A stretch of DNA of 64,000 nucleotides, from contig NZ_BAJY01000013.1 of assembly GCF_000613945.1 (NCBI RefSeq), positions 1 through 64,000 on the forward strand, in the 5' to 3' direction. A program made the position numbers and the translations under genes. Positions 5,371-35,440 of this stretch are shown piece by piece. Under the pieces are notes generated by a model, which was not told the origin of the DNA, did no database searches, and saw nothing but the letters and a program-made list of their open reading frames with translations. Position 1 is the stretch's first letter. Every line of letters begins with the position of its first letter. The stretch comes from Prevotella falsenii DSM 22864 = JCM 15124. GTDB taxonomy: Bacteria; Bacteroidota; Bacteroidia; Bacteroidales; Bacteroidaceae.

Positions 5371-5436
5371 ACCAAATCTATTTGAGCATTGCCACGGCGA
5401 GAAAACGCACTTTTCGAGGAACGAGAAAAGAACAAT
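5371..5436 (-). repeat. Dispersed module: CGAGAAAACGCACTTTTCG
   Basis: A segment around GCCACGGCGAGAAAACGCAC and GAACGAGAAAAGAAC recurs, in either orientation, at about 10963, 23915, 25204 and 47281. At 23915 and 47281 it directly follows the 184-bp element, so it looks like a 3' flanking module of that element found here alone. Confidence 0.6.
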
Positions 5437-5773
5437 CCGACACTACAAACGTAGGGGGCAAACTTGTTTTTGCCCCCTTTATTTATGCCCAAACCCCAAG
5501 TCCCACCTTTACAAACAGCACGGCTTGCGGTTGTTTTTCCCCTCTATAATCATATCAGAAATCCAAGTATCCATTCGGAAAGGCGAAACGATAGGCTTTG
5601 TTTTTCTCCCTATATTCGTGCCCGAAGTCCAAAGCAACCACACCTTACACCGATTGGGGCGATGTAGTCCTGCCCCTATATCCGTGCCCAAAGTCCAAGA
5701 CAACCACACCGTGGGGCATTCCGCTGGCAGGTTCGCAATCTCGTTTTACGGGCAGAAAACAAGCCATAAATCT
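5437..5773. other. Intergenic stretch with two degenerate direct repeats
   Basis: No convincing gene. Two imperfect copies of a unit reading CCCTATATTCGTGCCCGAAG followed by TCCAAAGCAACCACACC lie at about 5610-5648 and 5672-5711; a weaker relative is near 5485. Short open frames here have no recognisable protein features. Confidence 0.5.
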
Positions 5774-5957
5774 GTAATTATTTTTCGCAAACATAGCTGT
5801 CGCTTAACTCTCTGCCCATCAGTGCGTTACAATACCTATTGTTTGGCGTTCTTAAACCGTAGGTTTTGCACGGTAAAAGCGTAGGTTTTGCATTGCAAAA
5901 CCTACGCTTTCGCAACGCCAAACCGATTATATCACTTTTTAACAGAATTATCTTTAC
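5774..5957 (-). repeat. 184-bp dispersed element, copy 1
   Basis: Runs from GTAATTATTTTTCGC to CAGAATTATCTTTAC, exactly 184 bp. The ends form a short imperfect terminal inverted repeat (GTAAAnATnnTTC-like). Inside is a perfect hairpin GCGTAGGTTTTGC / GCAAAACCTACGC, plus a third related arm CCGTAGGTTTTGC. Nine other copies in the window have the same length. Confidence 0.9.
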
Positions 5958-6126
5958 AAAATCTGATAAACCAAACGAGGCATTATAAGTTACTACCGGT
6001 ATCCTGAAAATGGCTGCCGAACAAACTTGCAATTATACAGAGAAAGCGAGGAGCTTACATTTTAAGATGCACATTCACTTTAAAAATCTCTTTTGGAATA
6101 TATAGTTTCAAAAACTCTTCCATATT

Positions 6127-6157
6127 TTTGATATATTAATTTTTATAGTTATCTTTG
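6127..6157 (+). promoter_or_regulatory. Bacteroidota-type promoter ahead of the DRT3 locus
   Basis: TTTG (6127-6130), 19 bp, TATCTTTG (6150-6157): a full match to the Bacteroidota primary sigma factor consensus. Transcription would begin near 6164 and run through a truncated gene remnant (6199-6402) into drt3a at 6432. It is the only strong match I see before drt3a. Confidence 0.75.
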
Positions 6158-6198
6158 CAGAACAATTTATAATTACTATATAATACTTTTGACAATAA

Positions 6199-6402
6199 GT
6201 GAAACTAAAGACCGTAATAGCAGAATGTACTGCATACAACTCTAAGATAATACTTGAAAAGAAGAAGCCGAGAAGTTGGCTTAAAAGCATAATTACTTTT
6301 ACCAATGGCTTGGAAGAATCTTTATTTCTTAGTGTCAATAGTAATAGTATACCTAATGGGGTTGGTCGATATTCTAATGTGTATAATACTAACACTCAGT
6401 AG
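6199..6402 (+). pseudogene. Remnant of an AlbA_2 / Schlafen-type DNA-binding-domain protein, N-terminal fragment
   Basis: A GTG-initiated 67-codon frame whose first part (IAECTAYNSKIILEKKKPRS, then WLKSIITFTNGLEESLFLSV) strongly resembles the first 50 residues of AlbA_2-domain, AAA_4-type ATP-binding proteins common in Bacteroidales, where the typical text is KPKSWLKSVSAFANGxGGSL. The similarity fades after about residue 52 and the frame stops, whereas intact proteins exceed 350 residues. I read it as a truncated leftover at the left edge of the DRT3 insertion. It could still be translated as a short leader peptide because the promoter lies just upstream. Confidence 0.6.
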
Positions 6403-6431
6403 AAGTTCATAACCGCCTAAATAAAGAATAT

Positions 6432-7652
6432 ATGTATTCACAATCGTTCTCACCATATAATTTATATTCTTGCGTTACCCAAAGTGAGCGTAGGAATTAC
6501 GGACTGAGTAAAGAAGACTTTATTCAGAAATTGGAATTATGTGTTGGCAATACCATAGATGGAGGTCGGTATGATTTTAAAATTAAGACTTTAGGAGATT
6601 TATACCTCAACGATCAACCAAGAGATTCTATGGAATACCTTTGTCAGGATTTAATTCTGCGTAAGTTATATAACAATATCAAGCGCATATATAGAGTTGA
6701 GCAATCCAATCGTGATCAAATTGTGAAACAGATAGTTTCGTTGTTGAAAGAGGAAACCCCCAAATGGATTATTCGTATTGATATACGACATTTCTATGAA
6801 ACCATTAATCGTAATCAGATAATAGAGAATTTCCAAGCAAAAGGCAGATTAAGTCGTCAATCGATAAACTTACTTATAAAGCTTTTTTCAAATCCAGTAA
6901 TAAGCTCTAACAAAGGGTTACCTCGTGGTTTAAGTATAAGTTCCGTAATGTCAGAACTTTATATGAAGTATTTTGACTTAGAAATTCGCAGAATGAATGG
7001 CGTCTACTATTATGCACGATTTGTAGATGACATCATTGTGTTTTGTAGTAGTAAAAGATATCAAGAGGAGGTATGGGAAGAGATTCCTAAGATTTTGTCT
7101 AATATAAACCTGCAACTTAATGATTCTAAATCACACAAATGGAATGCTCATATACCGGTTAAACCTATAGATACCAGCAAACTAAAACATAAAGAACTTA
7201 CCTATCTTGGTTATAAGTTTATCCCCCAAGAGGACTGTAACTTGGAAATTACAATAGCAGACAAAAAAATAAATACAATAAAAACTCGTATTACAAAGAG
7301 TTTTGTTCGTTTTGCTAAAGATGGAGACTTTAGTAAACTTAAGAATAGAATCAAGTTCCTTACAGGCAATTTCACTCTTTATAATCCGTCTACCTTGCTC
7401 CCTATTAAGGTTGGAATCTATTTCAATTATAATATGATAACCGACAAGACGCCATTATACAATCTTGATAAATATTACCAAAGACTGTTGCATTGCAAGA
7501 GAGGACGTTTGGGTACAAGGTTAGCTGTAAAGATGTCCCCCGACCAACGAAAGGATTTATCCAAGTATTCTTTCTTCTTTGGCTTTGAAAAGCATGTGAA
7601 TCATTTTTTTACCTCTGCAATGCTTGCAGATATAAATAATTGCTGGCGATGA
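6432..7652 (+). CDS. drt3a: Antiphage reverse transcriptase Drt3a (DRT type 3, UG3 clade)
   Basis: A 406-residue reverse transcriptase. The N-terminus (MYSQSFSPYNLYSCVTQSER) and the stretch LRKLYNNIKRIYRVEQSNRD are typical of the UG3 group as I know it. Catalytic carboxylates are visible: motif A IIRIDIRHFYE with Asp117, motif B GLPRGLSISSVMSELYM, and motif C FVDD at residues 197-200, preceded by YYYAR. No maturase, integrase or endonuclease domain follows, so it is not a group II intron RT. The stop overlaps the start of drt3b as ATGA. Together with drt3b and the ncRNA it forms DRT type 3. In published work on DRT3 this subunit is reported, as I recall, to copy an ACACAC template in the ncRNA into poly(GT) DNA. 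The base composition is A+T-richer than the flanking housekeeping genes, consistent with transfer. Confidence 0.9.
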   Translation: MYSQSFSPYNLYSCVTQSERRNYGLSKEDFIQKLELCVGNTIDGGRYDFKIKTLGDLYLNDQPRDSMEYLCQDLILRKLYNNIKRIYRVEQSNRDQIVKQIVSLLKEETPKWIIRIDIRHFYETINRNQIIENFQAKGRLSRQSINLLIKLFSNPVISSNKGLPRGLSISSVMSELYMKYFDLEIRRMNGVYYYARFVDDIIVFCSSKRYQEEVWEEIPKILSNINLQLNDSKSHKWNAHIPVKPIDTSKLKHKELTYLGYKFIPQEDCNLEITIADKKINTIKTRITKSFVRFAKDGDFSKLKNRIKFLTGNFTLYNPSTLLPIKVGIYFNYNMITDKTPLYNLDKYYQRLLHCKRGRLGTRLAVKMSPDQRKDLSKYSFFFGFEKHVNHFFTSAMLADINNCWR

Positions 7653-9415
7653 GTAAAGATATAAATCTTAACAACAAATATAGAGTTCTTCTGACAGAGG
7701 TCTTACCGTATGAACTTCCTTTGATACTCGATAATGAAGGTTTCTATTTGAATATGCAGAATGAAGAGTTAAAACAGATATTCTATGAAACTTTCAAGGG
7801 GAAACTAAAGAAATGGACAATTCCATTTGATTATTCCGTACGTAAATACGGTGGAGATAAGAGTCGCAAGCTCAGTTTAATGCACCCTTTTACTCAATTA
7901 TCGTGTGTTGACTTTTACACTAAATATGATTACTATATACTTTCGCTTTGTAGTAATAGCCCATTCTCTATTCGCTACATTGCAGACCGTGCCAAATGCA
8001 TTTTCAAAGCAGAAGATACAGAAGAGGTGGAAACCAAAAGTCAACAGAACAATATTGAAATACAAGATGGTGAAATAGAAAAACGTTACCGCTCATACTT
8101 TAGTTATAAGCGGTATGATATGATGTATAAATTCTTTACCAGTGGTGATTATCTACGTCTCGAACAGAAATATACCCATCTGATGAAAATGGATATTGCC
8201 AGTTGTTTCTATCATATATACACTCATACAATTGCATGGGCTATCAAAGGTAAAGAACAAGCTAAAAGCCTAATAGGTAAACCAACATTCGAAAAGGAGT
8301 TTGACACGCTCATGCAACATACCAACTATAATGAAACGAATGGAATTATCGTAGGTCCGGAAATTTCACGTATATTCTCAGAAATCATCTTACAACGTAT
8401 AGATATCAATGTACTTAATCGACTTAAGCAAGAGCCATACTCTTTAAAACTGGGTCGTGATTATGAAGTCAGGAGATATGTAGATGATTATTATATTTAT
8501 GCAAATAGCAAAGACTGCCTTCTATCAATACTTGAAGTCTACAAGGAAGAGCTTGAGACCTACAAACTTTATATCAACGAGAGTAAACTTGAATTTTTAG
8601 AACGGCCTTTTGTCTCGAATGTATCTGTTGCAAAAAGAGAAATTAGTAGTCTGATATCAGACATTTCTGAACGTCTATTAGCAAAAGATGATAGTAAATA
8701 CAAATATGCTATAAAGAACGAAATGAAGTATTTCTCTTCCATTGTGAACAATTTCCGTTCGATAACATACAGATATAGTCAGAAGTATGGCACATTGAAT
8801 AGATATTTCCTCGTTCTAATAAAATCACAACTTGAAAGAGAGTTCAAAAAAGAGAGTGCCGCCAATGCAACCGCTGGACTACTACTAATGTATGTTGAGG
8901 TTTCCTTTTATGTGTTTTCGTTGGATATGAGTGCCTCTGCATCAATAAAGATTGGTCGTATTTTAGATTATCTTTACAAATGGGCTGAGAAATGTACAGA
9001 CAAAACAATACTACCTGAAATGGAAATTCGTATCTACCGTGAAGTAAAACGCTGTTTAGATATTTATGAAGTTAACAGAAAAGCAGGAGAAACCAATCTT
9101 GAAGCACTTAACCTTATGATTTGTCTTAGCCATTTAATGAAAACTCCAATACCACGTGCACAATTGATTAGTCTTTTCAATATTTCTGATGGTGATTCTA
9201 TAGAATACGAACATAAAAACTACTTCCAAATTTGTATACTTCTATATATAATTGGTCAAGATGCAGAATATGAGGATATTCGAATAAAGATTTTAGAAGA
9301 AGTTAAACGTCGACTAAAAAAAGAAAATGCAATGTGGTATGCTGACAATGCCATGCTCTTTTTTGATATTTTAGTATGCCCATTCGTCAGAAGGATGAAA
9401 AAAAAGATATACTAA
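7649..9415 (+). CDS. drt3b: Antiphage reverse transcriptase Drt3b (DRT type 3, UG8 clade)
   Basis: A 588-residue protein starting at the ATG at 7649, which overlaps the drt3a stop; a TTG three codons upstream is less likely. RT motif A is HLMKMDIASCFYHIYTH with Asp182. The segment NYNETNGIIVGPEISRIFSE corresponds to motif B, and motif C is YVDD at residues 277-280 (RRYVDDYYIY). About 300 helical residues follow, matching the C-terminal extension of Drt3b proteins. In DRT3 this subunit is reported, as I recall, to make the complementary poly(AC) strand without a nucleic-acid template. Both active sites look intact, so the system is predicted functional. Its stop overlaps the start of a small ORF (TAATG). 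Confidence 0.88.
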   Translation: MSKDINLNNKYRVLLTEVLPYELPLILDNEGFYLNMQNEELKQIFYETFKGKLKKWTIPFDYSVRKYGGDKSRKLSLMHPFTQLSCVDFYTKYDYYILSLCSNSPFSIRYIADRAKCIFKAEDTEEVETKSQQNNIEIQDGEIEKRYRSYFSYKRYDMMYKFFTSGDYLRLEQKYTHLMKMDIASCFYHIYTHTIAWAIKGKEQAKSLIGKPTFEKEFDTLMQHTNYNETNGIIVGPEISRIFSEIILQRIDINVLNRLKQEPYSLKLGRDYEVRRYVDDYYIYANSKDCLLSILEVYKEELETYKLYINESKLEFLERPFVSNVSVAKREISSLISDISERLLAKDDSKYKYAIKNEMKYFSSIVNNFRSITYRYSQKYGTLNRYFLVLIKSQLEREFKKESAANATAGLLLMYVEVSFYVFSLDMSASASIKIGRILDYLYKWAEKCTDKTILPEMEIRIYREVKRCLDIYEVNRKAGETNLEALNLMICLSHLMKTPIPRAQLISLFNISDGDSIEYEHKNYFQICILLYIIGQDAEYEDIRIKILEEVKRRLKKENAMWYADNAMLFFDILVCPFVRRMKKKIY

Positions 9416-9564
9416 TGAACGCCTATGGCTATAAAAAAGAAGATGAAGCATATACTAAATTGGAAATATACAATAAAACAAAGCGATGGTTCTTCAACTG
9501 GGATAAAACACAAGACCTTTCAGAGTTGTTATCCAAAAAGGAGTATCATTCGCCATACGAGTAA
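9415..9564 (+). CDS. Small coupled ORF (49 residues) between drt3b and the ncRNA, unknown function
   Basis: The ATG at 9415 shares its A with the drt3b TAA stop, an arrangement typical of translational coupling. The product (MNAYGYKKEDEAYTKLEIYN..., ending KKEYHSPYE) is charged and rich in aromatic residues, with no membrane segment and no family I recognise. It stops at 9564, 7 bp before the predicted ncRNA stem begins, so the gene neatly fills the space between drt3b and the RNA. It may be a real accessory peptide or simply a read-through ORF; conservation in other DRT3 loci would decide. Confidence 0.4.
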   Translation: MNAYGYKKEDEAYTKLEIYNKTKRWFFNWDKTQDLSELLSKKEYHSPYE

Positions 9565-9570
9565 TAAATT

Positions 9571-9786
9571 AAGGGAATCAGCGAACGCCCGAAGAGACAG
9601 TTCTGCGGTAACTAACTTTGATCAAATTAAGGAACCGATGTGAATATACGTTCTATTGGATTTGCTAGTAACGTTATATCGCATGCGTGCGATAATGTTA
9701 ACTATTGAATGCATTTGCAATGAAGAAAGAACGAGAGGAGTAATCCTCACACACTAATGACCCCCAAAGGCGTAGCAGATTCCCTT
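9571..9786 (+). ncRNA. Candidate DRT3 non-coding RNA with ACACAC template
   Basis: About 216 nt closed by a perfect 9-bp long-range stem, AAGGGAATC (9571-9579) with GATTCCCTT (9778-9786). The stem continues inward as GC/GC (9581-9582 with 9775-9776) and CGCC/GGCG (9586-9589 with 9769-9772). Inside are two further hairpins: TATCGCA-TGCG-TGCGATA (9677-9694), extended by GTAACGT with ATGTTAAC, and GAGGA-GTAA-TCCTC (9735-9748). Directly 3' of the second hairpin is ACACAC (9749-9754), the template sequence I recall for DRT3. The region has no plausible gene. Exact 5' and 3' ends are not determinable by eye; it may begin within or before the small ORF. Confidence 0.75.
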
Positions 9787-10130
9787 TTATAACATTTGCA
9801 TTGTCATTTCTACTAATACAAACTAGAATTTAAGTCTTCATTTTATTAAATGTGGACGGATTGCGGGGGCGAAATTCATTTCGTTCTTATATTCATGTTG
9901 CTGTTTCTTCGGTGTCAGGAAGGTGGTAAATCGCACCCCCTACCTCCGAAGTACATTGTAAATCCTATGCTTTTGCAGTGCCGGAAATGTTTTCGGAAAC
10001 AGCCTTGAGCAAGGAAAAGGAAATCAATTCCGCCGAAAATATCGCTTGCTCCTTATTCTTATTGTTGCCGTCCGATAAAGCGTTTGAGGGGCGCATCGGC
10101 TTTCTATGCACCTGTATGCAAGGTATCCGG
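9787..10130. other. Intergenic region right of DRT3
   Basis: No convincing gene. The A+T-rich composition of the DRT3 locus ends near 9850 and gives way to ordinary composition, which suggests the right limit of the transferred segment. Open frames here lack recognisable features. Confidence 0.5.
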
Positions 10131-10858
10131 TTAGTTGTTCAGCTTCATTCGTCTCCAAATCCGGTTCGGAATACGTCGCCACAGGGCTGTAAAAATTCGC
10201 CAACGACCATCGATTACGCAGACGTGGCGTTTTCTTTCTATGGCTTTCATAATGCTTTTTGCCACATTCTCGGTCTTCATCAGCATAGGGAAGTGAGAAG
10301 ATTCTGACAACAGCGGAGTGTCTACGAAACCGGGACGAATATCCGTGAAACGAATGTCATAACGGTTGTTGGCTGCCAACTGTTCCAAGGCTTGCAGGTA
10401 GGTGTTCTGCATAGCCTTCGTGGCACTGTAGGCAGGAATGGCTCCCAAGCCTTTTGTGCCTGCCACGGAAGTGATGCAGACAATGTGTCCGCCGCCGTGT
10501 GTGGCGAAATAACGATAGCTTCGCCCACCATACGCACAAAACCGAGACCATTGGTCTGCATTGTTTTCATTTCTTTTTCAGGGTCTAAAGTCGGATTTTT
10601 CCACCCGATGCCCGCTGAATGGAAATAAAGGTTCAGTCCTCCCATCTGCTCTATGAGCCGGTAAAGAGCCTCGTCCGCCTTCTCGTCGGTTACATCAATC
10701 TGCGCTGTGAAGACGCGTTCCGGAGCACAGATTTTCAAGTCTTCCAACTTTTCCTTGCGGCGTGCTGCCACGCCAACTGTCCACCCTTGCATGATGAGGA
10801 GCCTTGCCACCTCATGCCCGATGCCGCTGCTGGCACCTATTACAATTGCTCTTTTCAT
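10131..10858 (-). CDS. Short-chain dehydrogenase/reductase, frameshifted at about 10517
   Basis: An NAD(P)-dependent SDR oxidoreductase of 242 residues once repaired. The N-terminus holds the Rossmann motif IGASSGIGHEVARLL and the NLYFHSAGIGW segment. The second frame gives GLGAIPAYSATKAMQNTYLQ with the catalytic Tyr-x-x-x-Lys (YSATK) and the IRPGFVDTPL motif. The two halves are in different frames: reading GAAGC(T)TATCG with one extra base restores GEAYRYFATHGGGHIVCITS across the join, which is a perfect SDR sequence. The break therefore looks like a missing base rather than decay. The gene lies between two defence systems but has normal composition, so it is probably core-genome. The substrate is unknown. 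Confidence 0.8.
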
Positions 10859-10962
10859 AGTTCAAAAATTGATTTGTTACCTGTCTGTTAGCTTCAGTGT
10901 GTAAGTTGTTCTTTTACAAAGATAAGAAAAAAGTATCAAACCACCAAAAAACGTCCATCTTT

Positions 10963-11103
10963 CGTTGCCCGAAAAGTGCGTTTTCTCGCCATGGCAAGGT
11001 TCAAATCGGTTGGGCACTGCCCATTGGGTTCAACAAGAATATGGATTTTGCAGGGTAAAAGCGTAGTTATCACTTTCTTTCAGCGACGTTATCTTTATAA
11101 AAA
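10963..11103. repeat. Dispersed module followed by a decayed piece of the 184-bp element
   Basis: Bases 10963-11030 match the GAAAAGTGCGTTTTCTCGCC module and its GGTTGGGCACTGCCC extension, also seen at 25204. Bases about 11045-11103 (TTTTGCAGGGTAAAAGCG, TATCACTTTCTTTCAGCG, TTATCTTTATAAA) match the end of the 184-bp element with internal deletions. It occupies the gap between the SDR gene and the methyltransferase. Confidence 0.5.
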
Positions 11104-11189
11104 CGTTCGGAGTGAGCATTTCAATATAGAAAATAACCACACAAAAAGCACATTATTTCTCTAAAAAATTGCTATCTTTGCTTCCAATT

Positions 11190-12493
11190 ATGGCAACAGC
11201 AGAACAATATATAAGAGAAGATAGTAAACGAATATCATATATAAAGTCTTTGGTTAAAGAAAAAGCCGAAGACTTAATACTTATTCCTGAATCGCAAGCA
11301 ACACCAATTTCAAGAAAAAAATCTTGGAAAGATTTAGATTTCTCTCACCCTCAAAGAACAATAAGACTTGGTACCATGTTTAGTGGCATAGGTGCTATTG
11401 AACACGCTCTGCAAAGATTAAAGTTAAATCATCGTATAGTCTTTGCCGGCGATATAGATACTAAATGTAAACAAAGCTACTTTGCTAATTACGATATAAA
11501 GGAGGAAAACTGGTTTGATGATGCAAGAACTTTTGATGCACGAAAGTATAAAGGACAAGTTGATTTGCTTGTCGGTGGCGCACCATGTCAGGCATTTTCA
11601 ATGGTCGGTAAACGTTTAGGTTTTGAAGATGCACGAGGAACTCTCTTCTATGAGTTTGCACGTGTCATTAAAGAAACCCAACCCAAAGTCTTCATTTTCG
11701 AAATGTTAAAGGCTTGATCAATCATGATAAAGGCAGAACATGGATGGTTATGCATTCTATTTTCTCCGAATTGGGCTATCAAGTAAATTACCGAATCCTC
11801 AACAGTAAGGATTATGGAATCCCTCAACACCGAGAAAGAATATTCTGTATCGGTTTTCATACGCCAACGAAGTTTTCTTTTCCGGCTCCCATTAAATTGG
11901 AATATATAATGTATGATTTCTTGGAAGATTATGTTGATACGAGATATTTCCTCAAGGAAAAAGGTATTAAGTTCGTTACCAGCCATAAGAATAGGATTAA
12001 GTGCTATACACAAATCAATGGTGATATAGCTTTATGCCAAAAACGTAATCAACAATTTAACTGGCATGGAGACTTTATTTATCACCCCATGGCTATTGAT
12101 GAGGTTCCCGAAGAAGACTTTGATGAATTCATATTTAACGTGAAAGAAGTAGAGGAGAAGTATTACTTATCAGAAAAACTACGTAATTATGTACTTTGCC
12201 CGGGAACGAAAAATTTTAGTACAAGGATAGAAACCGACCTTGATATTGCACGTCCCCTTTTACATTCGATGCATAAAATGCACCGTGCAGGTGTTGATAA
12301 CTACGTTACACACAAAGGACGAATTAGGAAATTAACGCCAAGGGAATGCCTCCGTCTTATGGGATTTAAGGATTCTTTCAATATTGTAGTCTCAGACACT
12401 TCAGTTTATCAACAGGCAGGAAATTCGATAGTGGTAGACGTGTTAATAGCTCTACTCAAACAAATGGATATAACAAAATACGGCGAATTATGA
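11190..12493 (+). CDS. DNA (cytosine-5) methyltransferase of type II R-M system, frameshifted at about 11702
   Basis: The start at 11190 follows a TATCTTTG promoter box at 11173-11180. C5-methyltransferase motifs in order: motif I GTMFSGIGAIEHAL; motif IV GGAPCQAFSMVGKR with nucleophile Cys133; motif VI broken at the frameshift; motif VIII PQHRERIFCIGF; motifs IX-X LTPRECLRLMGF and YQQAGNSIVVDVL. The frame breaks in GAAATG; adding one A (GAAAATG) restores FIFENVKGLINHDKG, including the invariant ENV of motif VI, and gives 434 residues. It modifies host DNA to protect it from the HNH nuclease whose start overlaps its stop (ATGA). A truly dead methylase next to an intact nuclease would be harmful, which supports a sequencing deletion. 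A+T-rich. Confidence 0.88.
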
Positions 12494-13515
12494 TACTATT
12501 AGGAAACGAAAAATTTAATTTGATAGACGTGTTTCCCAAAATTTTGGCTATTCCCGATAGCTTTGTAGTTAGAAACAATAAGATACAAACAACAACAGAT
12601 AAAAGAAAAGAAAGCCATGGGGAGGCAAAGCTATATATTTCCTCAAAAGATACCATGCGAGAATTCTATGGGCAAGAAGGATTTCGCGTTACTTGCTTTA
12701 TGTTAAAGCAAGACCTTATCAATTATCTCAATACACTCAAAATTGAGTATCTGAATCCTTCACAGAATTATCGGGGAATGGAGAATTTATCGACCTTATG
12801 GACTGAAAGAATGAACAAAATAGTTCATTTACAAAATGAGATTATCACTTTTGAGATTTCCGATCAGAAACAAATAAAAGGGCCAAGAGGATACGTTAAT
12901 TCATCTGATGCAGGTTATCAACTTATTAGAGAACTATCATTACCATTGGTCAGTTATATACTCGTTAAGAAACTTACAGACACGGCCGGCAACGAACTTT
13001 ACTACTGGAAATTATTCGTAGATTTTGATGCCATCAAGCAAATGAAGTCATTGCCCACGATATTTGCATACGGAAAAGGAAAACAGCAACTACAAGAGGT
13101 TGATAAAACTGAAAAGAAAATAGAAGAAGAGGTTAATTCAATAAAGAAAGGAAGAGAAGGACAGCAAAAATATCGTGAGAAATTATTAGAACAATGCTCA
13201 TATTGCCCATTTACTATGGTTGCCGACGATCGTCTACTCATAGCCAGTCATATAAAGCCTTGGGCTGTATCTAATGAAAAAGAACGTATAGACCCATACA
13301 ACGGTTATATGCTTACACCTACATACGACCGACTGTTTGATCAAGGCTTTATTACATTCACAGAGGATAGACATGTTCATATCTCTAATTTCCTATCTAA
13401 TCGTACATGTAAGTTGCTGGGATTGGAAGACGATAAATTTATTCAAATGCTTCCTATGGATGAGAAAAGAATAAAATATCTTGAATTTCACAGACAATTT
13501 GTATTTAAGGGATAA
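12490..13515 (+). CDS. HNH restriction endonuclease of type II R-M system
   Basis: A 341-residue protein beginning within the methyltransferase stop (ATGA overlap). The C-terminal third carries an HNH_2-type nuclease motif: CSYCPF, then LLIASHIKPWAV with the conserved His, then DPYNGYMLTPTYDRLFDQGFI with the Asn and distal Asp. The N-terminal 220 residues do not match a family I know and are presumably the target-recognition part. Close coupling with a C5-methyltransferase makes restriction the most likely role; the recognition site cannot be read from sequence. A strong bidirectional terminator follows at 13613. Confidence 0.85.
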   Translation: MILLGNEKFNLIDVFPKILAIPDSFVVRNNKIQTTTDKRKESHGEAKLYISSKDTMREFYGQEGFRVTCFMLKQDLINYLNTLKIEYLNPSQNYRGMENLSTLWTERMNKIVHLQNEIITFEISDQKQIKGPRGYVNSSDAGYQLIRELSLPLVSYILVKKLTDTAGNELYYWKLFVDFDAIKQMKSLPTIFAYGKGKQQLQEVDKTEKKIEEEVNSIKKGREGQQKYREKLLEQCSYCPFTMVADDRLLIASHIKPWAVSNEKERIDPYNGYMLTPTYDRLFDQGFITFTEDRHVHISNFLSNRTCKLLGLEDDKFIQMLPMDEKRIKYLEFHRQFVFKG

Positions 13516-13612
13516 CCAATTGAACGATATTACTATTCTATTATATCAAAGGCTATGAAGAAGAGAAAATATTTAAGTTCTACTCGACAAAACAACTTTT
13601 AAGGAAAACAAA

Positions 13613-13650
13613 GAGGGGCTAAAACCGGCGAAATGCGGTTTTAGCCCCTC
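13613..13650. terminator. Bidirectional rho-independent terminator
   Basis: Perfect 14-bp stem GAGGGGCTAAAACC / GGTTTTAGCCCCTC with a 10-nt loop. T-run on the + strand, A-run preceding it. It lies between the convergent HNH nuclease gene and DUF3127 gene. Confidence 0.9.
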
Positions 13651-13695
13651 TTTTAGTTTATTGTAAGGCACGCCCGACGCTGCCTTTACCGAACT

Positions 13696-14085
13696 TTAGA
13701 ACGGTAGGTCGTCGGCTGCGCTGTCTGATGCAGCGGGTGGGAATGGTTCCTGACTTCCTCCTGCCGGTGCTTGTGGGGCAGCAGCGGGCGGCACGCCGGC
13801 AGCCTGTGCAGCTGCGGCATCGACTCTCTGAATGTTCCATGCACGAATGTTGTTGAACCATCTGCCGTTATATTCGTGTGCATCGATGTCGAAACTTACG
13901 ATGATTTCCTCGCCTGCCTTGATGGCAAACTGGTCGATACGGTCGGCACCGAAGATATTGAAGACCATTTTTCTTGGATATTGGTCGTGCGTCTCGATAA
14001 CATACTCTTGTGATTTCCACGGACCACGTGCCGATGTTCCCTCGCGTGGCTCTAATACTGCAATGACTCTTCCTTGTAATTCCAT
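13696..14085 (-). CDS. DUF3127-family protein with SSB-like acidic tail
   Basis: A 129-residue protein. The first 85 residues (MELQGRVIAVLEPREGTSAR, EYVIETHDQYPRKMVFNIFG, AGEEIIVSFDIDAHEYNGRWFNNIRAW) form the OB-fold-like DUF3127 domain, close in pattern to single-stranded DNA-binding proteins. A proline/alanine linker follows, and the protein ends SAADDLPF, closely resembling the DDDIPF tip by which SSB recruits partner proteins. A nucleic-acid-binding role is therefore likely but is inference. It is divergent from dnaN, so the two start sites share a 285-bp intergenic region. Confidence 0.82.
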   Translation of the reverse strand: MELQGRVIAVLEPREGTSARGPWKSQEYVIETHDQYPRKMVFNIFGADRIDQFAIKAGEEIIVSFDIDAHEYNGRWFNNIRAWNIQRVDAAAAQAAGVPPAAAPQAPAGGSQEPFPPAASDSAADDLPF

Positions 14086-14245
14086 ATTATATTTTGCGGT
14101 GTTATTAATAAATTTGTTTCTTTAAATACTTTGCATAAGTAAGCTGTGGTGGGGGTGTTCGGGTGCAAACACGCGTACCACTCGCCGGCATAACTTTGGC
14201 GAAATTACTAAAATAGTTCTAAAAACAAAAACTTTTACCTGTAAA

Positions 14246-14277
14246 TTTTGTTTTTCACATGGCTTTTTCGTATTTTT
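14246..14277 (+). promoter_or_regulatory. Promoter for dnaN
   Basis: TTTG (14246-14249), 20 bp, TATTTTTG (14270-14277), matching the Bacteroidota consensus, 94 bp before the dnaN start. Confidence 0.6.
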
Positions 14278-14370
14278 GTACGTTGAAGAAGAATATTTCG
14301 CTTTTAAGCCTGTGTGCTTATCGGAACTTCTTGCAGAAAATGAGTTATAACTAAAAATATATAGGAACTA

Positions 14371-15495
14371 ATGAGATTTACTATTTCAAGCACTGCCTTG
14401 AGCAGTAGATTGCTGTCGCTTTCGCGTGTTATCAACAGCAAAAATTCTTTGCCAATATTAAACTGTTTCGTATTCGATGCGCAGAACGGTCAGCTCACAA
14501 TCACTGCTTCAGATAGCGAGAACGTTGTCCGCATGTCGATAAATCTTGATTCACTCGAAGGTCAGGGCAAGTTTGCAGTAAATAACCACAATATCCTCGA
14601 TGCGGTGAAGGAACTTCCCGAACAACCACTCACCGTAGATGTGAATATGGGCGAACACACTATTTATATAAGCTATCAGAATGGTTCTTACAATTTCCCC
14701 ATCTTAGATGCCGACGAGTTTCCTATCCCACAGCCTGTTTCTGCCGATGCAACAAACATCACGCTGAGTGCGGAAGTGCTGGTAGATAACATTACACGTT
14801 CGCTTTTCGCTACTGCGCAAGACGAGCTTCACCCCGTGATGAACGGTGTGTACTTCGACCTCACGGCCGACAGCTTGGCTGTTGTTGCCACCGACGGACA
14901 CAAGTTGGTGCGCAACAGAGTGTTCTCTGTAAAGAACGACGTGCCTGCAGCTTTTATCTTGCCCAAAAAGCCGGCAGCATTGCTGAAAGGTTTTATAGCA
15001 AAAGAAGGCAGCGACGTTGTAGTGCGCTTCGATTCGCGCGCAGCCGAATTCTCGTTTAGCGAGGGCAATTTGGTTTGCCGACTTATCGATGGGAAATATC
15101 CGAACTACAACAGCGTAATTCCGGAAAACAATCCTTATCAAATCACCATCGACCGAAAGTCGCTCATTGGTGCTATCCGTCGCGTGTTGCCATTCGCAAG
15201 CGATTCTTCACAGCTCATTCGCTTCCACATAGCAAACGGACAGTTAGACCTTAGTGCAGAAGACATCGACTTCTCAACAAGCGCAAAGGAGAGCATGACC
15301 TGTACCTACGAAGGCAACCCTATGAGCATCGGCTTCAAGGGTAGCAGTATCTTGGAAATACTAGGCAACCTGCAAAGCGAAGAGGTAAACATACAGTTGG
15401 CAGACCCATCGCGCGCCGGACTCATTGTTCCGGTGGAACAACCTGAAGGCGAAAATGTGCTCATGCTGGTGATGCCGGTATTGCTCAACGATTAA
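14371..15495 (+). CDS. dnaN: DNA polymerase III beta subunit (sliding clamp)
   Basis: A 374-residue protein with the three-domain clamp pattern: MRFTISSTALSSRLLSLSRVINSKNSLPIL at the N-terminus, ATDGHKLV in the middle, and the C-terminal ending IVPVEQPEGENVLMLVMPVLLND, which matches Bacteroidota DnaN and carries the usual partner-binding C-terminus. It encircles DNA and tethers the replicative polymerase. The length is normal. It heads a gene group with an exonuclease, coaBC, porD and recN, an arrangement I know from Bacteroidales. A hairpin at 15516 separates it from the next gene. Confidence 0.95.
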   Translation: MRFTISSTALSSRLLSLSRVINSKNSLPILNCFVFDAQNGQLTITASDSENVVRMSINLDSLEGQGKFAVNNHNILDAVKELPEQPLTVDVNMGEHTIYISYQNGSYNFPILDADEFPIPQPVSADATNITLSAEVLVDNITRSLFATAQDELHPVMNGVYFDLTADSLAVVATDGHKLVRNRVFSVKNDVPAAFILPKKPAALLKGFIAKEGSDVVVRFDSRAAEFSFSEGNLVCRLIDGKYPNYNSVIPENNPYQITIDRKSLIGAIRRVLPFASDSSQLIRFHIANGQLDLSAEDIDFSTSAKESMTCTYEGNPMSIGFKGSSILEILGNLQSEEVNIQLADPSRAGLIVPVEQPEGENVLMLVMPVLLND

Positions 15496-15515
15496 TTAAG
15501 AAAGAAACAAGAGTC

Positions 15516-15546
15516 GTGGGCAGATTTTTTTAAGAAGTCTGCCCAC
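15516..15546 (+). terminator. Hairpin between dnaN and the exonuclease gene (attenuator-like)
   Basis: Perfect stem GTGGGCAGA / TCTGCCCAC with a T-rich loop. No clear T-run follows, so partial termination or mRNA processing is more likely than complete termination. Confidence 0.45.
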
Positions 15547-15569
15547 ATATACATTATAATAATAGCAGA

Positions 15570-16424
15570 ATGTTATTAAACTTAAAGAAGCCGTTAATTG
15601 TTTTCGACTTGGAAACAACGGGGCTCGACCTTGTAAAAGACCGTATCATACAATTATCGTATATAAAGGTATTCCCTGATGGGAAAGAAGAAAGAGAAAA
15701 CCTTTACATCAACCCTGAGAAAGAAATTCCGCAAGAGGTAGAAGAACTTACAGGCATCACCAACGACGATGTGGCCGCCGCACCAACGTTCAAAGAAAAG
15801 GCAGCCGAACTGGCTGATAAGTTCACGGGCTGCGATTTTGCCGGCTTCAACTCCAATCGTTTCGATATTCCGTTGTTGGCAGAAGAATTCCTCCGGGCAG
15901 GCGTAGACTTCGATTTCTCAAAGTGCCGACTCATCGATGCACAAAATATTTATCACAAAATGGAACGCCGAAACCTTGCCGCTGCTTACGAATTTTATTG
16001 TGGCAGAAAGATGGAAGACGACTTCACAGCCCATAAAGCCAACGAAGACACGGAGGCAACGTGGCGCGTTTTGCAAGGACAGATTAAGATGTACTCTGCT
16101 GAAAACCAAGACGAACCGGACCGCATACTGAAGAACGACATAGCCGAACTGGCAGAGTTCTCGCGTATGAACGACAACGTAGACTTTGCCGGACGCATCG
16201 TTTGGAAAGATGTTACCGACAAAGACGGCAAAACCTTGCTCGACGAACACGGACAGCCGCGCCGCCACGAGGTGTTCAACTTTGGCAAATATCGTGGGTG
16301 GGACGTGGCTGAAGTGCTACGCAGAGACCCCGGTTTCTATAGCTGGATATTGTCGAGCGACTTCACCTACAACACCAAACAAGTGCTCACACGCATTCGT
16401 CTTCGCGAATTTAACAATCGATAG
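15570..16424 (+). CDS. DnaQ-like 3'-5' exonuclease
   Basis: A 284-residue protein. Residues about 8-170 form a DEDDh exonuclease: Exo I IVFDLETTGLD (Asp and Glu), Exo II FAGFNSNRFDIPLL, and Exo III AHKANEDTEATW with the His and Asp. The C-terminal 60 residues (VFNFGKYRGWDVAEVLRRDP...SWILSSDF) match the extra domain of exonuclease-X-like Bacteroidota proteins. It probably proofreads or trims DNA ends; placement after dnaN fits a replication or repair role. It may serve as the epsilon-like proofreading activity, but that is inference. Ends 2 bp before coaBC. Confidence 0.88.
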   Translation: MLLNLKKPLIVFDLETTGLDLVKDRIIQLSYIKVFPDGKEERENLYINPEKEIPQEVEELTGITNDDVAAAPTFKEKAAELADKFTGCDFAGFNSNRFDIPLLAEEFLRAGVDFDFSKCRLIDAQNIYHKMERRNLAAAYEFYCGRKMEDDFTAHKANEDTEATWRVLQGQIKMYSAENQDEPDRILKNDIAELAEFSRMNDNVDFAGRIVWKDVTDKDGKTLLDEHGQPRRHEVFNFGKYRGWDVAEVLRRDPGFYSWILSSDFTYNTKQVLTRIRLREFNNR

Positions 16425-16426
16425 TC

Positions 16427-17628
16427 ATGCTCAAAGGAAAGAAAATCGTTCTCGGCATCACGGGTTCCATTGCCGCATATAAAAGTTGTCTTATCATTCG
16501 CCAACTCGTAAGGCAGGGGGCAGAGGTTCAGGTAGTCATAACGCCCGGTGGAAAAGAGTTCATCACCCCTATCACACTGTCGGCACTGACACAGAAACCG
16601 GTCATCAGCGATTTCTTTTCTCAACGCGACGGCACGTGGCACTCGCACGTAGACCTCGGTTTGTGGGCCGATGCCATGCTCATTGCACCCTGCACAGCCT
16701 CGACATTGGGCAAAATATGCCACGGCATAGCCGACAACATGCTCGTTACGACCTACCTTTCCATGAAAGCTCCCGTGTTCGTAGCTCCGCAATGGACCTT
16801 GACATGTACAAGCATACCGCTACACAAGCAAACATCGACATGCTGAAACGCAGGGGAAACCACATTATAGAAGCCGGCAGTGGCTTCTTGGCAAGCGGAT
16901 TGGAAGGCAAGGGACGCATGGAAGAACCCGAAGTCATCGTGGCTTTTTTAGACCAATATTTCGACAACAATGCTGCTATCACGCAGGATTTAAAGGGAAA
17001 GAATGTGCTGATAACTGCCGGACCTACATACGAAAAGATAGACCCCGTACGTTTTATAGGCAACTACTCGTCGGGAAAGATGGGCTTTGCCCTTGCCGAA
17101 GAGTGTTTCAAGCGAGGTGCCAACGTTACACTCGTCGCCGGACCTGTACATATAGCGTGCTCGGAGGGCATCAACCGCATAGATGTAGAAAGCTGCGAGC
17201 AGATGTACGAAGCCTGTCAGCAAGCCTTTCCTGTTGCCGATGCTGCCATACTGTGCGCCGCCGTGGCTGATTTCAAACCGCTGAACTTCTCGGAAACAAA
17301 GATTAAACGTGGAAAGGACAAACTGCACATCGACCTGCAACCCACCCACGACATTGCAGCCGCTTTGGGACAACGGAAGAAAAGCCGACAACGCATCGTC
17401 GCTTTCGCATTGGAAACAAACAACGAAGAAACAAACGCTTCGGCAAAGTTGGTGAAAAAGAATGCCGATTTCATCGTGCTGAATTCCACACGCAACGCCG
17501 GTACAACTTTCCGGTCGGACGACAACCAAATAACGATTATTTCAAAAGGAGGAAAGAAAGAATATGAAAAGAAGCGTAAACACTTGGTGGCTCGCGACAT
17601 TATTGACGAGCTGGTTTCTATTCTTTAA
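16427..17628 (+). CDS. coaBC: Phosphopantothenoylcysteine decarboxylase / phosphopantothenate-cysteine ligase CoaBC, frameshifted at about 16789
   Basis: A bifunctional coenzyme A biosynthesis enzyme. The N-terminal flavoprotein domain (GKKIVLGITGSIAAYKS, with the conserved LWADAMLIAPCTASTLGKI) decarboxylates 4'-phosphopantothenoylcysteine; the C-terminal domain (VLITAGPTYEKIDPVRFIGN, SSGKMGFALAEE, VAGPV, AAVADFKP) joins cysteine to 4'-phosphopantothenate using CTP. The frame breaks in GCTCCGCAATGG; inserting one G gives APAMDLDMY, the conserved PAM(D/N)xxM motif, and a 400-residue protein of normal length. It starts 2 bp after the exonuclease gene and overlaps porD by 65 bp. As an essential gene, the break is best read as a base-calling deletion. 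Confidence 0.92.
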
Positions 17629-18490
17629 CAACCACGCCACAGCGCAGGAGTTGCAAGCAAAGATAACCATCAACCACAACCAGATACAGGGTACGGACAA
17701 GTCGGTGTTCGAGAACTTGCAGCAAACCCTCGAACAGTTTGTGAACGAACGACAATGGACAAACCTGAAGTTCCAGAAGAACGAACGCATTGTTTGCAAC
17801 TTCAACATCACCGTTACAAAATACGACCAAAGCAGCAATGCTTTTACCTGTACGGCACTCATACAGGCGAACCGACCTGTCTACAACTCGGCATACACCT
17901 CTACATTGTTCAACATTAAGGACGCCGACTTCAACTTCGAGTTTGCGCAGTTCGACCAAATAGAGTTCAACGAAGAAAACATCGACAACCAGCTCACGGC
18001 TCTTTTCGGCTACTACGCTTATCTCATCATCGGCTTAGACCTCGATTCGTTCTCACCTATGGGCGGCGAAGACATTCTGCAACGCTGCATGAACCTTACC
18101 AACAATGCGCAGAACCTTAGCTTCACCGGTTGGAAAGCATTCGAAAACTCGAAGAACCGCTTCGCCATCATCAACGATTACCTCGACGGAGGTATGAAAC
18201 CCTTCCGCCAACTGCAATACGACTACTACCGAACAGGCTTGGACGAAATGGCAAACAGTCCTGAACGAGGCAGAACAAACATAACAACAGCTTTGGAAAC
18301 CGGTCTGAAAAAGGCGCACGAAGATAAACCCATGAGCATGTTACCACAGATTTGGACAGACTACAAGAAAGACGAACTTGCCAATATATACCATAAAAAG
18401 GGCACGCAAAAGGAGAAAGAGGCTGTCTACGAAATTCTTTTCGGCATCAATGCAAGCCAGAACGCATCGTGGGACAAGATTAAACAATAA
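17564..18490 (+). CDS. porD: PorD-like (DUF4835) protein, type IX secretion associated
   Basis: A 308-residue exported protein. Its signal peptide (MKRSVNTWWLATLLTSWFLFFNNHATAQ) is encoded inside the last 65 bp of coaBC, and no later start would keep it, so the overlap seems real. The body (ELQAKITINHNQIQGTDKSV, NIKDADFNFEFAQFDQIEFN, DLDSFSPMGGEDI) fits the DUF4835 family, called PorD in organisms with T9SS. The family is periplasmic or outer-membrane associated and is required for or linked to T9SS function. Three T9SS sorting-domain proteins elsewhere in this window agree with a working T9SS. It lies between coaBC and recN, as in other Bacteroidales. Confidence 0.83.
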   Translation: MKRSVNTWWLATLLTSWFLFFNNHATAQELQAKITINHNQIQGTDKSVFENLQQTLEQFVNERQWTNLKFQKNERIVCNFNITVTKYDQSSNAFTCTALIQANRPVYNSAYTSTLFNIKDADFNFEFAQFDQIEFNEENIDNQLTALFGYYAYLIIGLDLDSFSPMGGEDILQRCMNLTNNAQNLSFTGWKAFENSKNRFAIINDYLDGGMKPFRQLQYDYYRTGLDEMANSPERGRTNITTALETGLKKAHEDKPMSMLPQIWTDYKKDELANIYHKKGTQKEKEAVYEILFGINASQNASWDKIKQ

Positions 18491-18501
18491 TACAAACAAC
18501 T

Positions 18502-20171
18502 ATGCTCAAGCATCTTTATATAAAGAACTTCACGCTCATCGACCAATTAGACATCGACTTTCGCAACGGTTTCTCCGTTATCAGCGGCGAAACAGGTGCA
18601 GGAAAAAGCATTATTCTCGGAGCTATCGGCTTGCTTTTAGGCAACAGAGCCGACAGCAAACAGATAAAGCAAGGCGAGAAAAAATGCGTCATCGAAGCAA
18701 CGTTCAGTCTGCCAAAAGGTGCGTTCGACACGTTCTTTACCGACAACAACATCGACTTCGATGCCGATGAAACCATTCTGCGACGCGAAGTGGGCAGCAA
18801 CGGAAAGTCGCGTGCATTTATCAACGACACGCCCGTTGCCCTGAATTTGATGCGCGAAGTGGGCGACCAGTTGGTGGATATTCATTCGCAACACCAGAAT
18901 TTGCTTTTGCAAAAAGAAGACTTCCAACTTAACGTTATCGACATATTGGCTGCCAACGACAAGGAAATGGCAACCTACAAAAGCACCTTCAAGGCGTATA
19001 AAGATGCTGAAAAAAGGTTGGAACAAATAAAAAAGCAACTGAAAGAGAACGCCGAAAACGAAGAGTTTATGCGCTTTCAGCACGAAGAACTGTCAGGTGC
19101 GAACCTGCAAGAGGGGCAGCAAGAGGAACTCGAAGCCGAAAGCAAGACCCTTTCGCACGCAGAAGACATCAAGCATCGCTATACAATGCCGACAATGCAC
19201 TGAACGACGACGAGTCCGGAGCAGTGAAACAGCTGAAGTCTGCCGCCGAAGCCATAACGAACATTGCCCACGTTTTCCCTAAAGCCGAAGAACTTTGCAA
19301 CCGTCTCGACACCGCTTATATAGAGGTGAAGGACATTGCCGAGGAGATAAGCAGGGCGACCGGCGACATTGATTTCGACCCCAACAGGTTGGATTATATC
19401 AACGAACAGCTCGACAAAATATACCATCTCGAAAAGAAATTCCACGTGGAAACCATCTCCGATTTGCTCGCAATACAAGCCGAACTGAAGCAGAAGTTAG
19501 ACGGAATAGACAACAGCGACGAACTGCTGAAGGAAGCCGAGCAGGAACTTACTGCGAAACAAGCCGACTGTACCCGGCAGGCAGCCCTGCTGACCAAAAG
19601 CAGAGAGAAAGCTGCAAAAGCCATTCAGAAGGAAATGAAAGAGAAACTCGTGCCCATGGGCATACCCAACGTGCAGTTCGACATTCGGTTCGAGCCTAAA
19701 CCACCGGCTGCCGACGGTGCCGATAAAGTGCAATTCCTTTTCTCTGCCAACCGCAACAGTCCGCTGCAACCCATTGCACAAGTGGCTTCGGGGGGCGAAA
19801 TAGCCCGCGTCATGCTCTCGCTCAAGGCTATGATAAGCGGTGCCGTAAAGCTGCCAACCATCATTTTCGACGAAATAGACACAGGCGTAAGCGGCAAGAT
19901 AGCCCGGCAAATGGCTTTCGTAATGCAGCAAATGGGCAGCAACAACAAGCAGGTAATCTCCATTACACACCTTCCGCAGATTGCAGCATTGGGCACAACG
20001 CATTATAAAGTGGAGAAACACGACACTCCGATAGGCACCACCAGCCGACTAAGAGAACTGACAGCCGACGAAAGAGTTGTCGAAATAGCGCAAATGCTCT
20101 CCGGTTCAGACATCTCCGAAGCTGCCTTGCAGAATGCCCGCGAACTGTTAAACAGCAACCAACCCTCGTAA
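18502..20171 (+). CDS. recN: DNA repair protein RecN, frameshifted at about 19179
   Basis: An SMC-like ATPase for double-strand break repair. The N-terminus has MLKHLYIKNFTLIDQLDIDF and Walker A SGETGAGKSIIL. A coiled coil spans about residues 150-370 with the QHQNLL segment before it. The C-terminal half has the ABC signature VASGGEIARVMLSLK and Walker B TIIFDEIDTGVSGK. The frame breaks in CATCGCTATAC; adding one C restores KHRLYNADNALNDDESGAVKQL across the join. The repaired length is 556 residues, normal for RecN. It lies 11 bp after porD and 14 bp before the TPR gene, so all are probably one transcript. Confidence 0.92.
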
Positions 20172-22075: not shown

Positions 22076-22124
22076 TTTTCGTTTATATATTGCCACATTG
22101 CCACTATTCCGGCGCAGTAGGAAC

Positions 22125-22222
22125 GTTAGTTCGGCATAAGAAAGCAGGTGAAACAAGCTATTTCGCAGATGCTTTTAAGCAAATTCTTTGATGAAACCGG
22201 GAGAGATTTTCGGCTCGACTTT
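22125..22222 (+). repeat. 5' flanking module of the 184-bp element
   Basis: About 98 bp beginning GTTAGTTCGGCATAAGAAAGC and containing TTTCGCAGATG and TTTTAAGCAA. The same module precedes the copies at 23714, 37204 and 47091 at nearly the same distance (98-101 bp). Confidence 0.75.
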
Positions 22223-22406
22223 GTAAAGATAATTCTGTTAAAAAGTGATATAATCGCTTTGGCGTTGCGAAAGCGTAGGTTTTGCGATGCAAAACCTACG
22301 CTTTTACCGTGCAAAACCTACGGTTTAAGAACGCCAAACAATAGGTATTGTAATGCACTGACGGATAGATGGTTAGGCGATAGTTATACTTGCGAAAAAT
22401 ATTTAC
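22223..22406 (+). repeat. 184-bp dispersed element, copy 2
   Basis: From GTAAAGATAATTCTG to GAAAAATATTTAC, exactly 184 bp. Perfect central hairpin GCGTAGGTTTTGC-GAT-GCAAAACCTACGC, then third arm GCAAAACCTACGG. Outer arms TTTGGCGTT / AACGCCAAA close the structure. It lies between convergent tRNA-Arg and the gene at 22526. Confidence 0.92.
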
Positions 22407-22525
22407 GTTTTATTACGCTCTTTTTGTTCATGTTTACGTTGTGTGCTGCATACATACACACGGTGCCGATGATGTTGCTGCGCTGTGCGTGGCGCACTTA
22501 CATGCTGCGGAGAAAGGGTGGGGGA

Positions 22526-23614: not shown

Positions 23615-23615
23615 C

Positions 23616-23713
23616 GTGAAGTCTGCATAAGAAAGCTGGTGAAGCAGGCTACCTCGCAGACGTTTTTAAGCAAGTTCGCCAATGAAACAACGAGCGTTTT
23701 TCGGTTTAATATT
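23616..23713 (+). repeat. 5' flanking module of the 184-bp element
   Basis: 98-bp copy beginning GTGAAGTCTGCATAAGAAAGC, starting 1 bp after the HutD stop codon, so it would form the 3' untranslated region of that gene. Confidence 0.75.
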
Positions 23714-23897: not shown

Positions 23898-23914
23898 GTT
23901 TTTATTGCCTTATT

Positions 23915-35407: not shown

Positions 35408-35440
35408 AATTAATATTAAGAACTATAAAATTCTATTATA

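What the first reader, a model, noticed from the sequence alone, without database searches (positions are those of the whole stretch)
6432..9786. Complete DRT type 3 antiphage system with a recognisable ncRNA
Seen: two adjacent reverse transcriptases with intact active sites (FVDD at residues 197-200; YVDD at 277-280), overlapping by ATGA, then a 216-nt structured region with a 9-bp closing stem, two perfect hairpins and ACACAC directly 3' of the second hairpin. Established: DRT3 is defined by two RTs (UG3 and UG8) plus an ncRNA, and recent work as I recall assigns an ACACAC template to Drt3a. Inference: this Prevotella-like locus is a functional DRT3 that makes alternating GT/AC DNA. The ncRNA position (downstream, after a small ORF) and fold can be read here without an alignment.
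Basis: partly seen in the sequence, partly recalled or inferred. Interest (0 to 1): 0.85.

Follow-up and report, generated by a model that had tools for sequence, protein, structure and literature searches.

The report
Prevotella DRT3 two-enzyme antiphage locus
This is a genuine DRT3 antiphage locus (two DNA-making reverse transcriptases plus a structured template RNA) in a Prevotella-like bacterium; its second enzyme looks cut in two in this assembly, most likely through a sequencing error, so it is a new member of a known kind of system.

Summary
The locus is real DRT3. Drt3a (6432-7652) and Drt3b (from 7649) match their NCBIfam and PADLOC models far above cut-off or rival families. The downstream ncRNA is found at 188.9 bits by a covariance model built without it. 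Its fold has covariation support, and its ACACAC (9749-9754) lies directly 3' of a hairpin. Residues reported to gate and catalyse synthesis in E. coli DRT3b are present.

The "small ORF" (9376-9564) is the conserved C-terminal tail of Drt3b in the -1 frame. It carries the penultimate tyrosine matching the reported DNA-priming residue. As assembled, Drt3b is split and lacks its primer. The six same-genus relatives examined have one unbroken frame. The host assembly has many similar breaks: 18 of 140 comparable gene rows (17 distinct genes), against 1 of 122 in the reverse comparison. The split is most likely an assembly error and the true system complete. A genuine loss-of-function mutation is the main rival; a programmed frameshift is unlikely.

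Novelty: new member of a known kind. By-products worth keeping: a nearly universal ACACAC downstream of Drt3b, within otherwise dissimilar RNAs.

The parts
6432..7652 (+). Drt3a reverse transcriptase, 406 aa, FVDD at 197-200
   Evidence: NCBIfam NF041747 378.6 bits, cut-off 200; PADLOC Drt3a 374 bits; PDB 9z6y chain A E 6e-39
7649..9415 (+). Drt3b reverse transcriptase, body as assembled (588 codons from ATG 7649); E22, D182, R241, YVDD 277-280
   Evidence: NCBIfam NF041748 569.1 bits, cut-off 350; PADLOC Drt3b 563 bits; residues
9376..9564 (+). Open frame holding the Drt3b C-terminal tail (-1 frame; tail proper from about 9406), ending SPYE; tyrosine codon 9556-9558 matches the reported priming tyrosine
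   Evidence: Drt3b models 589-647/647 and 593-651/651; alignment with six relatives
9387..9406 (+). Site of the one-nucleotide frame break; contains an A8 run (9398-9405) and the heptamer A_AAA_AAG (9400-9406)
   Evidence: alignment with six relatives, none with the break or the A8 run
9568..9791 (+). DRT3 ncRNA, Prevotella form; closing stem 9571-9579/9778-9786
   Evidence: held-out model R2 9568-9789, 188.9 bits; R1 9568-9791, 213 bits; covariation
9677..9694 (+). internal ncRNA hairpin, 7 bp, 4-nt loop
   Evidence: sequence and fold
9735..9748 (+). hairpin directly 5' of the template, 5 bp, 4-nt loop
   Evidence: sequence; pairs 95.5% kept in 11 sequences, one pair changed on both sides (helix 7)
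9749..9754 (+). ACACAC, presumed Drt3a template
   Evidence: template role from PMC13174585
6130..6157 (+). Bacteroidota-like promoter match (TAnnTTTG at 6150 with TTG upstream); weak, consensus recalled
   Evidence: one of five TAnnTTTG matches in 5400-9900 and the only one with the upstream TTG

Best explanation
The locus is a DRT3 antiphage system in a small defence island. Inferred mechanism, by homology to the tested E. coli system: Drt3a copies the ACACAC of the ncRNA into poly(dTdG); Drt3b, an oligomer, starts DNA on its own penultimate C-terminal tyrosine and adds alternating dC and dA, selected by R241 and E22; the strands anneal into double-stranded DNA whose build-up during infection stops growth. 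Shown here: identity of both RTs, catalytic and gating residues, an ncRNA with conserved fold and template, a conserved tail with the tyrosine. Inferred: that the one-nucleotide frame break between Drt3b body and tail is an assembly error, so that the living cell makes a full-length enzyme.
For: Family models. Held-out ncRNA model 188.9 bits. Covariation: 11 of 29 pairs changed on both sides, 92.4% of cells paired against 84.2% in shuffles. E22, D182, R241 at the E. coli numbers and an intact YVDD (numbers). Six of six same-genus relatives unbroken. 18 of 140 gene rows split in this assembly (17 distinct genes) against 1 of 122 in the reverse test. The five window gene-splitting sites resolved at DNA level are all one-base deficits in the window. 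The tail is still under coding constraint: changes by codon position 8, 5, 21 against L005, 18 synonymous and 9 non-synonymous codons.
Against: No reads, transcripts or second assembly of this strain were available, so the break itself is what the record shows. At about 0.12 breaks per kb a gene this long would carry an error by chance only about one time in five, so a real mutation is not excluded. Against L007 the tail shows equal synonymous and non-synonymous changed codons (17 and 17), a weaker sign of constraint. No product or phage protection was tested.
Confidence: 0.82

Rival explanations
1. A genuine DRT3 locus whose Drt3b carries a recent, real one-nucleotide deletion. Drt3b then lacks its tail and priming tyrosine, so the poly(dCdA) strand and the defence are lost.
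For: The frame stops at 9415. Broken DRT3 genes occur elsewhere: L041 has about 650 nt inserted in Drt3b, and an E. coli plasmid locus has its Drt3b region annotated in two pieces. In PMC13174585 a Y666F change abolished poly(dCdA) and defence.
Against: The many breaks in this assembly, some in conserved genes; the tail still looks coding.
Confidence: 0.12
2. The break is real and is bypassed: -1 ribosomal frameshifting on A_AAA_AAG, or slippage or length change of the A8 run, fuses the tail to a fraction of Drt3b and so sets the supply of priming tyrosine.
For: The heptamer A_AAA_AAG lies in the required register at 9400-9406 and a -1 shift enters the tail frame (the heptamer's role in other genes is recalled). 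The tail is conserved.
Against: Neither the break nor the A8 run is found in the six same-genus relatives. No stimulatory element was looked for. The assembly-wide breaks give a simpler cause.
Confidence: 0.03
3. Drt3b ends at 9415 and the 62-codon ORF is a separate small protein of the system.
For: The small frame has an ATG and is open for 62 codons.
Against: It matches the end of the Drt3b models, and in six relatives the same residues are the end of Drt3b.
Confidence: 0.01

Closest known systems
E. coli DRT3 (EcoDRT3; preprint PMC13174585; Deng et al. 2026 known to me only as cited there and in PMC13314766; PDB 9z6y, 9z6z named Drt3a/Drt3b, and 26cz, whose identity as EcoDRT3b is my inference)
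   Same: Two RTs in the same order with a downstream ncRNA holding ACACAC; E22, D182, R241 at the same numbers; YVDD (one residue later here); a tyrosine one residue from the C-terminus
   Different: Distant in sequence (9z6y Drt3b matched at 269 bits over the body); ncRNA not recognised above noise between the Prevotella model and the Enterobacter, Vibrio and E. coli plasmid loci fetched; tail split in this assembly
DRT3 of Prevotella pallens ATCC 700821 (L006/L037) and of G083 and G237 (L005, L004/L038)
   Same: Drt3b body 77% identical, same 637-aa form, ncRNA aligned end to end
   Different: Unbroken Drt3b; in G083 the system lies elsewhere and the locus is 75% identical at DNA level while shared chromosome blocks are 85-91%; P. 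pallens has GCACAC at the template
DRT9 and DRT10 (ncRNA-templated tandem-repeat DNA) and DRT4, AbiK (protein-primed, untemplated), as described in PMC13174585 and PMC13314766
   Same: Drt3a works like the first pair, Drt3b like the second, by the papers' account
   Different: Single RT each; the family models here point to Drt3a and Drt3b, with other families far weaker

Membership tests
DRT3 | First RT of the UG3 / Drt3a family | tested here: met
   NF041747 378.6 bits against cut-off 200; PADLOC Drt3a 374 bits, next non-Drt3a family 130. No tree built.
DRT3 | Second RT of the UG8 / Drt3b family | tested here: met
   NF041748 569.1 bits against cut-off 350; PADLOC Drt3b 563, next non-Drt3b family 147. 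No tree built.
DRT3 | Adjacent genes in the order a, b, then ncRNA | tested here: met
   ATGA overlap 7649-7652; ncRNA begins just after the tail's stop at 9564
DRT3 | Structured ncRNA downstream | tested here: met
   Held-out model from 10 relatives, 188.9 bits; covariation. The published E. coli-type model was not available to run.
DRT3 | ACACAC template in a loop region of the ncRNA | tested here: met
   9749-9754, unpaired in the predicted fold; 41 of 44 related downstream stretches, window included, hold ACACAC
DRT3 | Catalytic motifs in both RTs | tested here: met
   FVDD 197-200 and YVDD 277-280
DRT3 | Gating residues E22 and R241 of Drt3b | tested here: met
   E22 and R241 in the window; R241 in 45 of 45 rows, E22 in 41 of 45 with 1 D and 3 gaps
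DRT3 | Priming tyrosine near the Drt3b C-terminus | tested here: inconclusive
   Present and penultimate in the -1 frame tail (9556-9558) but not joined to the body in this assembly
DRT3 | Makes poly(dTdG)/poly(dCdA) DNA and protects from phage | not testable with these tools
   Needs expression, DNA sequencing and plaque assays
Programmed -1 frameshift gene | Slippery heptamer in register before a conserved downstream frame | tested here: met
   A_AAA_AAG at 9400-9406 and conserved tail
Programmed -1 frameshift gene | Frame arrangement conserved among relatives | tested here: not met
   0 of 6 same-genus relatives

The most novel reading that the evidence does not exclude
The frame break is real and the A_AAA_AAG/A8 site meters how many Drt3b subunits receive the priming tyrosine, so that recoding, slippage or change in run length sets the amount of poly(dCdA) and arms or disarms the system.
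Probability: 0.03. Interest if true: 0.8.

Novelty: new member of a known kind. Interest (0 to 1): 0.33.

Why it matters
It extends a very recently explained system, in which a protein acts as template for DNA, to Prevotella, and supplies an aligned ncRNA set for that branch. The comparison suggests what is nearly fixed across distant DRT3 loci (ACACAC, R241, a C-terminal tyrosine) and what is free (the rest of the ncRNA, the tail sequence). It also shows that gene breaks in this assembly need checking before any gene in it is called broken.

Tried and rejected
Separate small gene at 9376-9564: rejected, it is the Drt3b tail. Programmed frameshift: pursued first because heptamer and frame fit; set aside because six of six same-genus relatives are unbroken and because of the assembly-wide breaks.

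Viral relatives: none by protein. Nine viral stretches match a 16-base ncRNA pattern; 3 of the 9 gave model hits of 9.3 bits, E 0.43, and none better, so I take them as chance. Phage records: 8 with matches, none covering 80% of the query. The Prevotella ncRNA model on 33 other loci gave nothing above noise: best outside the window L048, just after its Drt3b, 13.8 bits, E 0.065, while an unrelated place in the window scored 15.6 bits, E 0.02; on four plasmid loci the best was L127, 14.2 bits, E 0.018. A hairpin touching the template is not a general rule by my simple test: 25 of 41 against 39% expected. The L041 insert gave no Rfam match. 'DRT3' with 'Prevotella' gave 0 papers in the held library.

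Papers seen: PMC13174585 (abstract and outline, Results parts 1 and 2 of 3, ncRNA methods, Discussion, figure legends part 1 of 2, find passages); PMC13314766 (find passages and start of abstract); PMC13213688 and the other listed papers (search listing only); Deng et al. 2026 (not seen; as cited in those two).

Rows left out of counts. One search examined 50 loci (L004-L009, L019-L035, L037-L063); L010-L018, which matched Drt3b only locally, were not carried forward, although one of them (L018) is the same place as L020. drop six loci held twice (L026, L027, L037, L038, L043, L052) and L029 (contig end); one search also drops L041 (interrupted) and L035 (below the family cut-off). The E. coli plasmid locus L124 was fetched but not put because its Drt3b region is annotated in two pieces. 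Of 140 plasmid records matched, four regions were fetched.
Full report
WHAT IS THERE. The ncRNA region folds better than all of 200 shuffles (-61.3 against -43.5 +/- 4.1 kcal/mol, z -4.36).

IDENTITY OF THE ENZYMES. The first ORF matches NCBIfam Drt3a at 378.6 bits (cut-off 200) and the second NCBIfam Drt3b at 569.1 bits (cut-off 350). PADLOC gives Drt3a 374 and Drt3b 563 bits, with the next other families at 130 and 147. Both match solved DRT3 chains (9z6y). Residues that PMC13174585 reports as gating or catalytic in E. coli DRT3b are at the same numbers here: E22, D182 and R241. The YVDD is one residue later than the paper's numbering implies. An arginine at 73 probably corresponds to their R71 (that correspondence is my reading). 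No UG-wide tree was built.

THE MISSED POINT. The small ORF 9376-9564 is the end of Drt3b. It matches Drt3b model positions 589-647 of 647 (E 4e-5) and 593-651 of 651 (E 1.6e-6). In six same-genus DRT3 loci (L004-L009) the same residues end one unbroken Drt3b (KKEYHSPYE or REYHSAYE). PMC13174585 reports that E. coli DRT3b starts DNA on Y666 of 667; the window's tail has its tyrosine at the same penultimate place (9556-9558). As assembled, the long frame stops at 9415 and the tail lies in another frame. The window has one nucleotide fewer than the relatives just upstream of, or in, an A8 run (9387-9406). In the upstream frame that run reads A_AAA_AAG, a heptamer known for -1 frameshifting in other genes (recalled).

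WHY IT IS PROBABLY AN ASSEMBLY ERROR. None of the six relatives has the break or the A8 run. I compared 620 ORFs of at least 150 aa from 915 kb of G083, a close genome in two contigs, with 437 kb of the window's genome. Of 140 rows that could be compared, 18 were split between frames in the window's genome (17 distinct genes, one sampled twice); in the reverse direction 1 of 122 was split in G083. The window's own share is 6 of 37 rows, 5 distinct genes. That test required 75% identity, so the Drt3b tail is not among the 18; Drt3b shows as split in the looser, where 11 of 37 rows were multi-frame, some of them duplicates or antisense frames. Split genes in the window include a Flavoprotein/DFP pair (16427-17628, a coaBC-type gene; the name is recalled), a RecN/SMC-type ATPase (18502-20171) and a dehydrogenase-like gene (10131-10858, name from its sequence, not from a family search). 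A neighbouring C5 methyltransferase is split too (PF00145 positions 5-109, then 114-322). The five gene-splitting sites of the window resolved at DNA level are all one-base deficits in the window. The tail still looks coding: changes against L005 by codon position are 8, 5, 21, with 18 synonymous and 9 non-synonymous changed codons; against L007 the latter are 17 and 17. A recent real mutation is not excluded: about 0.12 breaks per kb gives roughly a one-in-five chance of an error in a gene this long, and no reads were available.

THE ncRNA. The window's region aligns with ten relatives (A3). For the consensus structure 92.4% of cells pair against 84.2% in shuffles; 11 of 29 pairs have changes on both sides against 5.3; 27 cells against 8.7. 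At most 1 of 500 shuffles reached any of the five measures, and sliding the partners drops pairing to 40-45%. Some rows are close relatives, so independent changes are fewer. A model from the ten relatives without the window (R2) finds 9568-9789 at 188.9 bits, E 5.2e-54; the next window hit has 11.2 bits. A model with the window (R1) hit 3 of 299 genus genomes, all DRT3 carriers and all in its training set. That shows few false hits, not new finds, and the listing does not say which other DRT3 carriers were in that draw. Rfam at the gathering threshold reported three tRNAs in the window and nothing here.

THE TEMPLATE ACROSS DRT3. Loci were found by Drt3b. Within 330 nt after the stop, ACACAC is present in 41 of 44 non-redundant stretches, the window included, against 6% expected from mononucleotide shuffles, and in 0 of 43 final 330-nt stretches of the Drt3b gene. 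The loci are related to each other, so these are not 44 independent cases. Misses: L006 (P. pallens type, GCACAC), L035 (below the Drt3b cut-off) and L062. The distance from the stop differs: 147-187 nt in the window and its Prevotella-type relatives, but only 29-50 nt in 13 loci (L019-L025, L028, L030-L033, L063). The Prevotella model finds nothing above noise in the others. So the template is nearly fixed while the rest of the RNA is not. A hairpin touching the template on its 5' side was not general by a simple test (25 of 41, 39% expected). A tyrosine lies in the last three residues in 43 of 44 Drt3b rows other than the window, the exception being L060.

SETTING. In G083 (L117) a copy of a dispersed repeat lies about 90 bp from the dehydrogenase-like gene; in the window the gap from the repeat (5773-5962) to that gene's block (10093) is about 4.1 kb and holds DRT3. 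Next to it, 2.6 kb with a C5 methyltransferase and an HNH endonuclease (10967-13608) is absent from G083, where 3 bp separate the flanks. The DRT3 locus is 75% identical to G083's own copy, which lies elsewhere, against 85-91% for shared chromosome blocks. This fits horizontal acquisition into a small defence island (inference).

MECHANISM. By homology to the E. coli system (PMC13174585): Drt3a copies ACACAC into poly(dTdG); Drt3b primes on its tyrosine and alternates dC and dA without a nucleic-acid template; the strands anneal and the duplex triggers abortive infection, restrained by RecBCD in E. coli. Whether Prevotella uses the same restraint is unknown. None of this was tested for this locus.

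VERDICT. A true DRT3 locus, a new member of a known kind, most likely complete in the organism and split only in the assembly. Interest in the locus itself is moderate to low; the frame question would be settled by reads.

Noticed in passing
window 5773-5962; also about 22120-22430, 23610-23920, 27470-27770, 30690-30920, 34460-34770, 40390-40630, 46980-47300, 50360-50600: A dispersed, partly palindromic repeat of roughly 190-310 bp, with dozens of copies in the close genome G083, hit on both strands. Copies also lie near DRT3 in both genomes.
   Followed up: partly
window 11187-13515: C5 cytosine methyltransferase (split in this assembly) followed by an HNH endonuclease: a probable type II restriction-modification pair next to DRT3, missing from the matching place in G083.
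   Followed up: partly
L019-L025, L028, L030-L033, L063: ACACAC lies only 29-50 nt after the Drt3b stop in these 13 loci, so the 5' part of the ncRNA may overlap the coding region or the RNA may be built differently.
   Followed up: no
L006/L037 (Prevotella pallens ATCC 700821): The ncRNA has GCACAC where the relatives have ACACAC, with Drt3b otherwise intact: a natural template variant.
   Followed up: no
L041 about 5534-6189: About 650 nt inserted in Drt3b of a Paludibacteraceae MAG, bounded by inverted repeats; looks like a short insertion sequence (inference; no Rfam match). The ncRNA behind it is intact.
   Followed up: partly
window 6199-6402: A 67-codon ORF just upstream of Drt3a with no Pfam or PADLOC match; it reminds me of the start of an AlbA_2-type protein (recalled, untested).
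   Followed up: partly
G083 contig C2, end (L120) and 31500-40700: The end of the contig repeats an interior stretch that matches window 10093-19653: a duplication or an assembly artefact in G083. L120 was left out of the frame-break counts.
   Followed up: no
whole genome G000 (window and 19 further stretches): Many one-base frame breaks: 18 of 140 gene rows, 17 distinct genes. Apparent pseudogenes in this assembly should not be trusted without reads.
   Followed up: yes
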